Shown here: one piece after another, positions 42,397-45,855 of the stretch | How the letters are laid out: each line of letters begins with the position of its first letter | Position numbering within the stretch: the first letter of the stretch is position 1 | NCBI GenBank assembly: GCA_902523885.1 | Contig: CABZAV010000001.1 | Coordinates: 248,001-312,000, forward strand | DNA: 64,000 nt | Direction: 5' to 3' | From: an uncultured SAR86 cluster bacterium | GTDB taxonomy: Bacteria > Pseudomonadota > Gammaproteobacteria > Magnimaribacterales > AG-339-G14 | Notes under the pieces: generated by a model | The model's input: the letters and a program-made list of their open reading frames with translations, nothing else | The model's database searches: none | Told to the model about the DNA's origin: nothing | Translations under genes and position numbers: made by a program

Positions 42397-43350
42397 TTAA
42401 AGAAACATTGCACTAATAGATTCTTCCTTATTAACTCTATTTATAGCATCAGATAATGTTTCGTCTATAGAAATGATCTTAATCTTTTTTAATTTTGAAG
42501 CATTTTCTGAAAGAGGGATTGTATCAGTAACTATCAATTCGTCTAGCTTTGAATTACTAATTCTTTCAATTGCTGGTCCAGAAAGAACCGCATGGGTGGC
42601 ATAGGAAACAACTTTGCTAGCACCTCCTTGTTTAAGTGCTTCAGCGGCATTACAAATTGTACCTGCAGTATCGATAATATCATCTACCAATATACAAGTT
42701 TTTCCTTGAACATCTCCAATTACGTTCATAACTTGAGATGAGTTTTCTTTTTCTCTTCTTTTATCGATTATGGCTAAATCAGCATCATCTAACAATTTAG
42801 CCAAAGCTCTAGCTCTAACCACTCCTCCGACATCAGGAGAAACTATGATTTGATCTTCATAAGAAGAATTAACAATATGATTATGTATAACTTTTGTTCC
42901 ATAAACGTTATCAACAGGAACATTAAAAAATCCTTGAATTTGATCTGAATGCAGCTCTATGGTTAAGATTCTGTCTGCTCCAGCGCTTTGCAACATATCA
43001 GCAACTAATTTAGCACTTATTGGAACCCTCTCAGATCTTACTCTTCTATCCTGTCTAGCATATCCAAAATAGGGAATTACCGCTGTTATTCTAGATGCAG
43101 AAGATCTTCTAAGAGCATCTATAAGAATAATAAGCTCCATTAGATTGTCATTTGCTGGGAAACAAGTAGATTGCAAAATAAATACATCTTTTCCTCGCAC
43201 ATGTTCATCGACTCTGATATTTAATTCTTTGTCACTAAATTTATCTACCAAAGCTTTTCCTAGAGTAGTATTTAATTTTTTGGCTATTTTATTGGCTAAT
43301 TCAGGATTCGAATTTCCTGAAAAAAGAACTAGGTTATTTTTGTCATTCAT
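42397..43350 (-). CDS. prs: ribose-phosphate pyrophosphokinase
   Basis: Prs makes PRPP, the precursor of nucleotides, histidine and tryptophan; hisG, a PRPP user, is in the same window. It is 317 aa (E. coli 315). Visible motifs are [30 protein letters not shown] and the PRPP-binding [12 protein letters not shown]. tRNA-Gln lies 9 bases upstream on the same strand, so prs probably shares its transcript. Confidence 0.98.
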
Positions 43351-43359
43351 AATTTATGT

Positions 43360-43434
43360 TGGCTGGGGTGGATGGATTCGAACCATCGCATGGCGGCATC
43401 AAAAGCCGCTGCCTTACCGCTTGGCTACACCCCA
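43360..43434 (-). tRNA. tRNA-Gln (TTG)
   Basis: On the minus strand the 75-base tRNA begins TGGGGTGTAGCCAAGC and ends CACCCCAGCCA, with CCA encoded. The acceptor TGGGGTG pairs fully with CACCCCA. The anticodon loop TTTTGAT between GCGGC and GCCGC gives TTG. It matches E. coli tRNA-Gln closely. Its first 10 bases contain the final codons and stop of ispE, so the two genes overlap. Confidence 0.96.
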
Positions 43435-44237
43435 TTTTTATTTAATTCTTTTAATAAAGGCGATTCGTTTAAACTCCTTGTTACAAAATAATTATTATTT
43501 TTTGGAGCATTATCTATTATTTTACTTGCCTCTTCAAAAGAATTAAATATTGCATACAAGGCAGAGCCTGTTCCAGTTAAGTTCCCTTTTTTTATAGATT
43601 CTAACCAAATAAAAGAATCGTCAACTTCTTTATAATTCTTTCTAGCCCATTTTTCAAAAAAATTAAAATCTTTACTCTTTTTTGAATTTTTAAAATCATT
43701 GATCTTTATTTCTCTAAAAGCTTTTGCAGTTGAAATGTTACATTTAGGCATAACTAAAAAAATTATTTCTTCTTTTAATAATGTTTTTGAAAATATTTCC
43801 CCTTTACCATTTGCTTTTCTTGCAACTCCCTCAATAAAAATTGGAACATCGGAGCCTAATGAAGAACCAAGATCCTTTAAAACTTTATTATTTAAATTTA
43901 ATTTCCAGTATTTGTTCAATACAAGTAGCACAGTCGCAGCATTAGAACTTCCGCCTCCAAGGCCTGAGCCAATTGGAATATTTTTCTTTATTTTTAGAGA
44001 AACTTCCTTATTAATTTTATAGGTTTTTTTTAAAAGATGGATTGCTTTATAGGCAAGATTGTTTTTTTCCTTTACTTTTGGGCAAGTAACCTGCGAAGTG
44101 CTCGTATCAAAATTGAAAGTTATTTCATCTCCCCATTCTAAAAATTGGAAATTAGTTTCAATATCATGAAAACCATCAGACCTTTTTTTTAAAACATTAA
44201 ACCCTCTATTTATCTTGGCTGGAGAAATAAAAATCAT
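43425..44237 (-). CDS. ispE: 4-diphosphocytidyl-2-C-methyl-D-erythritol kinase
   Basis: IspE phosphorylates CDP-methylerythritol in the MEP route to isoprenoids. The 270-aa GHMP kinase has K8 in SPAKIN, the ATP loop PIGSGLGGGSSNAA at 88-100, GSDVPIF and the C-terminal TGTGSALYAIF. Its last codons and TAG stop are the first ten bases of tRNA-Gln. It overlaps lolB by 4 bases (ATGA), the lolB-ispE-tRNA-Gln-prs order of Pseudomonas. Confidence 0.95.
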   Translation of the reverse strand: MIFISPAKINRGFNVLKKRSDGFHDIETNFQFLEWGDEITFNFDTSTSQVTCPKVKEKNNLAYKAIHLLKKTYKINKEVSLKIKKNIPIGSGLGGGSSNAATVLLVLNKYWKLNLNNKVLKDLGSSLGSDVPIFIEGVARKANGKGEIFSKTLLKEEIIFLVMPKCNISTAKAFREIKINDFKNSKKSKDFNFFEKWARKNYKEVDDSFIWLESIKKGNLTGTGSALYAIFNSFEEASKIIDNAPKNNNYFVTRSLNESPLLKELNKNGV

Positions 44238-44719
44238 GATTTAAAAATAACAGCAAATTTAAAGTTTTTATATGAACCAACAATTTTCTTAATCTTTTTA
44301 TTTGCATGAATTTCTTCTTTGGTAATTATAACGTTTTGCGTAGCATACTCTTTACATTCATTCAGGTTGCATAATTCACTAAGCCATTTACTAAATCTAG
44401 ATATTGTAATTTCTTCAAATAAATTTTTGACAATATTTTCCTCATAAGATTCGTTAAAATTGTTATTAATTTTTTTTTGATTTCCTTCTCTGACTTCGGT
44501 AATTAAGAAAGTTTTTGGGTATCTATCAAGATTAATTTTTATTTGGCTAATTTCTTTTTGATTAAAAATAGAAATTTTTCCAGAAATATAAGTATTTTCT
44601 GAAAACATTGAGAATTTTCCTATTATTTTTTTAGAATTAGAATCGCTTTCCAGATTGGTGGTTGAACAGCTAATAAAAAGAATAAATAAAGATAATAGGA
44701 AAGGCTTTTTAAAATACAT
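44234..44719 (-). CDS. small lipoprotein at the lolB position
   Basis: The 161-aa protein begins with a lipoprotein signal ending LFISC, with lipidation expected at C18. It stands where LolB, the outer-membrane acceptor of lipoproteins from LolA, precedes ispE in other gammaproteobacteria. It is shorter than E. coli LolB (207 aa) and I see no decisive LolB motif, although it has a similar beta-rich pattern ([17 protein letters not shown]). A strongly diverged LolB is the best guess; an unrelated lipoprotein is possible. It is divergent from prfA with 47 bases between. Confidence 0.6.
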
Positions 44720-44766
44720 ATTTAAATTTTTTTAATAGATATCGATTTATAATAACCAAATTAGTC

Positions 44767-45855
44767 ATGCTGGATACAATTTTATTAAAGTTAGATTCTA
44801 TAAAAGAAAGATACCTTTTTTTAGAAAAAGAACTATCTAATTCTGAAATAGTTAATAATCATCAACTTTATGCGAACTATTCTAAAGAATATTCAAAAAT
44901 AAAAAAAATAGTAGAAAAATATGAAGAACATAAAACATATTTAGAAAATTTTTCTTCAACTAAACTTTTACTTGAAGACTCAGATCCTGAAATAAAATCC
45001 TTAGCTCAAGACGAATTAAATATTATTACTGAACAACTGAAAATAAATGAATTAGAAATAAAAAAACTTTTAATACCTGAAAATGAAAATGATGAAAAAG
45101 ATGTATTTTTAGAAATTAGAGCAGGAACAGGAGGGGATGAAGCAGGTTTATTTGTTGGGGACTTGTTTAGAATGTTTACTAGGGTTACCGAAAGAAAGAA
45201 ATGGAAAATAGAACTAATTAGCTCAAGAGAAAGTGAAAAGGGTGGATTCAAAGAAGTAGTTGCAAAAATTTCCGGCAAACAAGTTTACAGGTTTCTCAAA
45301 TTTGAATCAGGAGTGCACCGTGTTCAGAGGGTCCCTGATACTGAATCTCAAGGGAGAGTGCATACGTCAGCATGCTCTGTTGCAGTTTTACCAGAAGTTG
45401 AAGAATTAGACTCAATTGAAATTGATAAATCAGAAATTAGAGTCGATACTTTCCGCGCATCAGGGGCAGGAGGACAGCATGTCAATAAAACAGATTCAGC
45501 AGTAAGGCTGACGCATATACCTAGCGGATTGGTTGTTGAATGTCAGGATGGGAGATCCCAACATAAAAATAAAGCAAAGGCTATGACTTTATTACAGTCA
45601 AAGTTGATGGAAAAAGCAAATAATAAACAAATTGAAAAACAAGATTCAGAGAGAAAAAATATGGTGGGTAGTGGAGATAGGTCAGAAAAAATAAGAACTT
45701 ATAATTTTCCTCAAAATAGAATTACCGATCATAGAATTGAATATTCAATTCACAGTTTAGAAGCCTTCTTGGATGGCGATATTGATGAAATGATAGAAAC
45801 GTTAATTGAGGAAAATCAAGCGAGGCTATTGTCGCAATTGGAAAGCAATCTTTAA
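44767..45855 (+). CDS. prfA: peptide chain release factor 1
   Basis: RF1 terminates translation at UAA and UAG. It is 362 aa (E. coli 360). The GGQ motif is at 235-237 in [16 protein letters not shown]. The codon-reading PxT motif reads PDT ([13 protein letters not shown]), within the known range at the middle position. A TATAAT at 44748-44753 might be its -10 box, but no -35 is convincing. hemA, usually upstream, is absent. prmC follows after 3 bases. Confidence 0.97.

What the first reader, a model, noticed from the sequence alone, without database searches (positions are those of the whole stretch)
43425..43434. The ispE stop codon lies inside tRNA-Gln
The last bases of ispE, including its TAG, are the first ten bases of tRNA-Gln on the same strand (GGGGTGTAG in both). 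If they share a transcript, RNase P cleavage at the mature tRNA 5' end would remove the ispE stop codon and leave a nonstop mRNA. Translation and tRNA processing would then compete, with trans-translation or decay of the cut message as the outcome.
Basis: partly seen in the sequence, partly recalled or inferred. Interest (0 to 1): 0.6.

Follow-up and report, generated by a model that had tools for sequence, protein, structure and literature searches.

The report
Enzyme gene borrows a tRNA's stop
In this ocean bacterium the gene for an isoprenoid-making enzyme has no stop signal of its own and ends on three letters that are also part of the core of the next gene, a transfer RNA; the same arrangement has arisen repeatedly in related bacteria and looks like tolerated gene packing rather than a dedicated switch.

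Summary
ispE (TIGR00154) ends with TAG at window 43427-43425, which is U8-A9-G10 of the downstream same-strand tRNA-Gln(UUG), 43434-43360. RNase P cutting at 43435|43434 would leave ispE without a stop. It is not a sequencing error: in SAR86 family f1, 26 of 30 junctions examined end inside the tRNA and 4 abut it. In an even sample of Gammaproteobacteria, one genome per family, 10 of 53 readable ispE/tRNA-Gln junctions overlap. They use TAG at 8-10, TAA at 19-21 or, once, TAG deep in the tRNA. Thus unrelated IspE proteins end in the same tRNA-coded tail WGVAKR. In this genome a carboxylase gene also ends at 8-10 of tRNA-Pro(GGG), and the single tuf (EF-Tu) gene shares its stop with tRNA-Trp.

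A shared transcript is plausible, and tmRNA and SmpB are present. But overlaps are fewer than random stop placement predicts. Sister families carry conserved promoter-like elements just before tRNA-Gln, and f1 has a candidate about 100 bases upstream. Best reading: a borrowed stop from gene packing, with RNase P-made nonstop ispE as a tolerated by-product. The closest precedent is selB/selC (Mukai 2021).

The parts
43425..44237 (-). ispE, 4-diphosphocytidyl-2-C-methyl-D-erythritol kinase, 270 aa, stop TAG
   Evidence: TIGR00154, 194.2 bits
43425..43427 (-). ispE stop codon TAG = tRNA-Gln U8-A9-G10
43360..43434 (-). tRNA-Gln(UUG), CCA encoded; the only tRNA-Gln among 32 tRNAs surveyed in this genome and the only one among 35 matches in complete genome G013
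43425..43434 (-). shared ten bases (last codons AAT GGG GTG TAG; the T of AAT is tRNA nt 1)
43434..43435 (-). expected RNase P cut between 43435 and 43434; upstream RNA would end ...AAA AA with no stop
   Evidence: inferred from the tRNA 5' end; not measured
43351..43359 (-). 9-base spacer between tRNA CCA end and the prs ATG
42397..43350 (-). prs, ribose-phosphate diphosphokinase; no Shine-Dalgarno core upstream, which is usual here (7 of 54 large ORFs have one)
44234..44719 (-). 161-aa ORF in the usual lolB position, overlapping the ispE start by ATGA; no NCBIfam match
43509..43537 (-). candidate internal promoter TTGAAG-17-GATAAT inside ispE; same place in 26 of 26 overlapping f1 junctions, absent in 4 of 4 abutting ones (genus g3); also codes for conserved protein, so unproven

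Best explanation
ispE has lost its own stop codon by close packing against tRNA-Gln and now ends on the first in-frame stop that the tRNA supplies: U8-A9-G10 in this frame, the D-loop TAA (19-21) in another. These tRNA letters cannot drift, so the borrowed stop is stable once acquired, and indels only switch the frame and the stop used. On any transcript that carries both genes, a ribosome at the stop covers the acceptor and D arms and excludes RNase P. Once ribosomes have cleared, the tRNA folds, RNase P cuts before nt 1, and any later ribosome on the ispE fragment meets a 3' end without a stop and is rescued by tmRNA/SmpB. Much tRNA-Gln probably comes from a promoter inside ispE, which limits the conflict. 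Shown: the overlap, its conservation and recurrence, the presence of tmRNA and SmpB, and the lack of enrichment. Inferred: RNase P cleavage of a shared transcript, ribosome exclusion, rescue, and the internal promoter.
For: Overlap and gene identities. Family f1: 26 of 30 junctions overlap (25 with TAG at 8-10, 1 with TAA at 19-21) and 4 abut. Frame switch inside one genus: G009 (L011/L053) uses TAA at 19-21 where its relatives use TAG at 8-10. Recurrence: 10 of 53 readable junctions in a one-per-family sample of the class, including both common stops and one stop deep in the tRNA (L399, overlap 64). Outside SAR86, 9 of 59 readable named loci overlap, in Spiribacter/Ectothiorhodospiraceae, Thioglobus/Vesicomyosocius, Kangiella, Rhodanobacteraceae and one other proteobacterium. 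Same pattern at other tRNAs: single-copy tuf/tRNA-Trp in 16 of 16 f1 genomes and a carboxylase/tRNA-Pro. No enrichment: 8 observed against 17.05 expected, P about 0.001 for so few. Promoter-like TACAAT kept in 39 of 39 f2 loci, also where Leu changed to Ile. tmRNA and smpB are adjacent in this genome.
Against: In f1 no promoter-like -10 lies close to tRNA-Gln, so reliance on the upstream transcript, and thus routine nonstop ispE RNA, cannot be excluded. The overlap has stayed fixed in three genera of f1, which a selected arrangement would also do. The last 30 ispE codons are somewhat poor in synonymous change (rank 8 of 255 windows in genus g4, 23 of 251 in g1), so something may be encoded there. 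The null shuffles single bases and ignores protein constraint and phylogeny.
Confidence: 0.7

Rival explanations
1. Selected switch: RNase P cleavage and ispE translation compete on one transcript so that tRNA-Gln maturation limits IspE output, with trans-translation clearing the cut message.
For: Geometry fits; overlap fixed in genera g1, g2 and g4 of f1; no proximal promoter in f1; tmRNA and SmpB present; prs would be left with a 9-base leader.
Against: Stops lie 0-6 bases before the tRNA in most f2 and 17-19 before it in all f3 loci examined. Overlaps are fewer than random stop placement. No functional link between IspE and tRNA-Gln is known to me. The same overlap occurs at tuf and a carboxylase gene, which argues for packing.
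Confidence: 0.08
2. Separate transcripts: tRNA-Gln is made almost only from a promoter inside ispE, and ispE messages do not suffer RNase P cleavage to any relevant degree, so there is no conflict at all.
For: TACAAT 20-31 bases before tRNA-Gln in 39 of 39 f2 loci, kept through a Leu to Ile change. A TAAAAT or TAGAAT hexamer 14-16 bases before tRNA-Gln in 21 of 21 f3 loci. TTGAWG-17-GATAAT in 26 of 26 overlapping f1 junctions.
Against: Any ispE transcript that keeps its stop must include at least ten bases of the tRNA, and no terminator-like site was found in 43250-44800, so ispE RNA most likely runs on through the tRNA into prs. The f1 candidate overlaps conserved protein sequence.
Confidence: 0.19
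3. The tRNA-coded IspE tail (GV or WGVAKR) is itself useful to the enzyme and keeps the overlap.
For: The same tails recur in unrelated lineages.
Against: The tails follow from the conserved tRNA sequence; close relatives without the tail exist (g3, f2, f3).
Confidence: 0.02
4. Sequencing, assembly or gene-calling error.
For: One relative (L238, G140) does show a frameshifted ispE.
Against: The same ending is seen in independent genomes across a whole family.
Confidence: 0.01

Closest known systems
selC (tRNA-Sec) nested in or overlapping the 3' end of selB (Mukai 2021, PMC8124441; parts 1 and 2 of 3 read)
   Same: Same-strand tRNA shares its sequence with the end of the upstream ORF; in Dyella/Luteibacter the selB stop lies inside the tRNA (nt 46-48); the author proposes that tRNA processing leaves a nonstop selB mRNA and a leaderless downstream mRNA.
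   Different: Here the overlap is usually 10 or 21 bases, the tRNA and the enzyme have no functional link, the stop is made of core tRNA letters (U8-A9-G10 or the D loop), and the arrangement recurs in about a fifth of sampled gammaproteobacterial families.
Mitochondrial tRNA punctuation (PMC9674279, passages)
   Same: tRNAs flank coding sequences and RNase P cleavage sets the mRNA 3' end; the paper notes that a tRNA fragment can supply an in-frame stop for ND1.
   Different: There the stop is completed by polyadenylation. Here the stop is fully encoded in the tRNA, and adding A residues to ...AAA AA would give Lys codons, not a stop.
arfA, whose message is cut by RNase III before its stop and cleared by tmRNA (PMC3989581, passages)
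   Same: A ribonuclease removes the stop codon in a tmRNA-containing bacterium.
   Different: Different nuclease; arfA uses it as a sensor of tmRNA capacity, for which nothing speaks in ispE.
mRNA-tRNA operons such as E. coli secG-leuU processed by RNase P (Mohanty and Kushner 2008, seen only as a citation in PMC3985628)
   Same: Protein gene and tRNA on one transcript separated by RNase P.
   Different: The overlap of stop and tRNA is not mentioned in what I saw; the paper itself is not held.

Membership tests
selB/selC-type overlap of an ORF with a downstream tRNA | Same-strand ORF stop lies inside the tRNA | tested here: met
selB/selC-type overlap of an ORF with a downstream tRNA | Whole tRNA nested in the ORF (main form of the precedent) | tested here: not met
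   Only 10 of 75 bases overlap here; L399 overlaps by 64
selB/selC-type overlap of an ORF with a downstream tRNA | Conserved in a lineage but lost in some members | tested here: met
   26 of 30 f1 junctions overlap, 4 abut
selB/selC-type overlap of an ORF with a downstream tRNA | Protein acts on the tRNA that overlaps it | tested here: not met
   IspE is an isoprenoid kinase
selB/selC-type overlap of an ORF with a downstream tRNA | Processing yields nonstop upstream and short-leader downstream mRNA | not testable with these tools
   Sequence predicts it (9-base spacer); no RNA data
Mitochondrial tRNA punctuation | Stop codon completed by 3' adenylation | tested here: not met
   The stop is fully encoded; remnant ...AAA AA plus A gives Lys
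arfA-type tmRNA-controlled nonstop message | tmRNA and SmpB in the genome | tested here: met
arfA-type tmRNA-controlled nonstop message | Protein level depends on tmRNA capacity | not testable with these tools
   no expression data
IspE (TIGR00154) | Score above curated cut-off | tested here: met
   194.2 bits against 138.7
tRNA (RF00005) | Score above gathering threshold, cloverleaf in transcript context | tested here: met
   66.1 bits against 29; acceptor, D and T stems form in the folded junction, anticodon arm drawn slightly shifted

The most novel reading that the evidence does not exclude
tRNA-donated stop codons are a widespread, so far little described way in which gammaproteobacterial messages end, and RNase P acts on them as a nonstop-generating nuclease, so that tRNA maturation sets the number of translation rounds of the upstream gene, in SAR86 even for the single EF-Tu gene, linking EF-Tu output to tRNA-Trp maturation.
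Probability: 0.08. Interest if true: 0.8.

Novelty: new member of a known kind. Interest (0 to 1): 0.42.

Why it matters
It shows a simple route by which bacterial genes lose their own stop codon: many tRNAs offer TAG at 8-10 and often a TAA in the D loop, so a CDS that drifts into a tRNA is caught by an immovable stop. It predicts that RNase P makes nonstop messages from essential genes, in f1 SAR86 from the single tuf gene, a load for ribosome rescue that can be measured. It also warns annotators that CDS ends inside tRNAs can be real.

Tried and rejected
Considered and rejected: sequencing error (refuted by relatives); SAR86 streamlining as the sole cause (overlaps also in families with 2-4.4 Mb genomes); selection for overlap (no excess; one search used a looser motif and gave 9 observed against 16.8 expected in 48). 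The promoter scan of the window is no better than shuffles (5 found, mean 7.9), so the f1 candidate rests only on its conservation. A 78-codon ORF ending at tRNA-Thr (L141) was discarded because it starts at the tRNA-Tyr gene beside it. Synonymous-site constraint at the ispE 3' end is suggestive only. A first pass on order members gave wrong gaps of about 800 because upstream extensions were included in the query; corrected.

Rows dropped: L238 (frameshifted ispE) from the f2 tally; L310 (weak 39.8-bit match) from the promoter tally; 9 of 53 junctions (2 with runs of N, 7 without the motif, of which L381 and L412 do overlap; with them the count would be at most 10 of 46). In the class sample 11 loci had no recognised ispE before tRNA-Gln and 4 had no tRNA-Gln; L372 has two tRNA-Gln genes and is counted once; 2 of 70 genomes (G216, G224) were not fetched. 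In f1 30 of 36 ispE matches were read in the tally; others were seen through prs loci. f4 was sampled by one genome only (L412).

Papers: prior reports were sought (listings); none listed describes ispE/tRNA-Gln. The library holds only open-licence papers.

Full report
What is there. On the minus strand the order is an unnamed 161-aa ORF in the usual lolB position, ispE, tRNA-Gln(UUG), prs, rplY, pth, ychF, tRNA-Met. The first ORF and ispE overlap by ATGA. ispE ends AAT GGG GTG TAG, and the tRNA begins with the T of AAT, so the TAG is U8-A9-G10. The tRNA scores 66.1 bits with Rfam and ispE 194.2 bits with TIGR00154. The tRNA ends 9 bases before the prs ATG. The genome is a SAR86 member (titles of the nearest named loci), 1.1 Mb in 15 contigs, 88% complete.

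Conservation in SAR86. Of 30 f1 junctions read, 25 end at TAG 8-10, one at TAA 19-21, and four (genus g3) have their own stop directly before tRNA nt 1. The TAA case (G009) sits in a genus whose other members use TAG: the frame moved, and the overlap stayed because the tRNA offers a stop in two frames. In family f2, 36 of 39 loci have the stop 0-6 bases before the tRNA, two overlap (L229, L233) and one is frameshifted and dropped. In f3, 21 of 21 have it 17-19 bases before. The one f4 genome read overlaps at TAA 19-21 (L412).

Recurrence. Among 80 named loci, 63 have a readable junction and 13 overlap, 4 of them SAR86, so 9 of 59 outside. In an even sample of 70 genomes, one per family (only the two SAR86 families f1 and f4 are from this order), 68 were read; with the window's own genome, 53 are readable and 10 overlap. 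IspE proteins from unrelated families therefore end in the same tRNA-coded tails, (x)GV/GA or WGVAKR. Several of these genomes are 2-4.4 Mb, so genome reduction is not required.

Other tRNAs. In this genome 3 of 32 tRNAs hold the stop of a same-strand CDS: tRNA-Gln, tRNA-Pro(GGG) after an ORF that reads as an acyl-CoA carboxylase subunit (naming recalled, no family search), and tRNA-Trp after tuf, where TAG shares its A and G with nt 1-2. In the complete f1 genome G013 it is 5 of 35, and in the f3 genome G176 0 of 35. tuf is the only full EF-Tu match in this genome. Its stop overlaps tRNA-Trp in 16 of 16 f1 genomes and 3 of 11 f3 genomes; the other 8 f3 genomes have a 1-base gap, and the 3 f2 genomes have gaps of 59-62 (30 of the 56 matches were read).

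Is the overlap selected? A simple null, shuffling the bases between the conserved N-x-S-P-L motif of IspE and the tRNA, predicts 17.05 overlaps in 44 junctions; 8 were seen (P about 0.001 for so few; 8 against 12.9 in the 27 closest junctions, P 0.03). So there is no excess, and perhaps mild avoidance. This null ignores phylogeny and protein constraint.

Transcription. In f2 a TACAAT lies 20-31 bases before tRNA-Gln in 39 of 39 loci, inside ispE; in three of them the Leu codon became ATA (Ile) and TACAAT stayed, while TTA is only 46% of f2 Leu codons. In f3 all 21 loci carry a TAAAAT or TAGAAT hexamer 14-16 bases before the tRNA. Both look like tRNA promoters. In f1 nothing similar lies close to tRNA-Gln. 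Non-overlapped tRNAs of two f1 genomes have a -10 with at least 5 of 6 matches in 37 of 58 cases, overlapped ones in 3 of 8, shuffles in 33%. TTGAWG-17-GATAAT lies at the same place, about 100 bases before the tRNA, in 26 of 26 overlapping f1 junctions and in none of four abutting ones, but it also codes for conserved residues, and such matches are expected by chance.

Mechanism. A ribosome terminating at nt 8-10 must hold the acceptor and D arms open, so translation and RNase P exclude each other at that moment. After cleavage the ispE RNA would end ...AAA AA and later ribosomes would need rescue; tmRNA and SmpB are encoded side by side. These steps follow from general knowledge of RNase P and trans-translation (recalled) and were not observed. 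The balance of evidence favours a borrowed stop fixed by packing, with tolerated nonstop products, over a selected switch.

Relation to what is known. Mukai (2021) described tRNA-Sec nested in or overlapping selB and proposed the same consequence, a nonstop upstream and a leaderless downstream message. The present case works the same way on paper but differs in overlap length, in the lack of a functional link, and in breadth. Mitochondrial punctuation and arfA are related in effect.

Noticed in passing
L147 1500-1502 (G000:C1 about 191111): The single tuf (EF-Tu) gene ends in TAG whose A and G are nt 1-2 of tRNA-Trp; the same in 16 of 16 f1 SAR86 genomes.
   Followed up: partly
L156 (G000:C2 about 155174) and L293 (G013): An ORF that reads as a carboxyltransferase subunit ends at U8-A9-G10 of tRNA-Pro(GGG).
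   Followed up: partly
L199-L238 without L203 (family f2), 20-31 bases before tRNA-Gln: TACAAT is invariant inside the ispE 3' end, even where the amino acid changed, suggesting a tRNA promoter embedded in coding sequence.
   Followed up: partly
L179-L198, L203 (family f3): Conserved TAGAATAAAATACGC-like block across the ispE stop, 14-21 bases before tRNA-Gln; looks like a promoter.
   Followed up: partly
L399 (G206): ispE reads through most of tRNA-Gln and stops 64 bases in, the third frame; a nearly nested case.
   Followed up: no
L238 (G140): ispE is frameshifted near its end, by assembly error or a real lesion.
   Followed up: no
window, 54 ORFs of 150 aa or more: Only 7 of 54 have a Shine-Dalgarno core upstream; stops are 36 TAA, 9 TAG, 9 TGA.
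   Followed up: no
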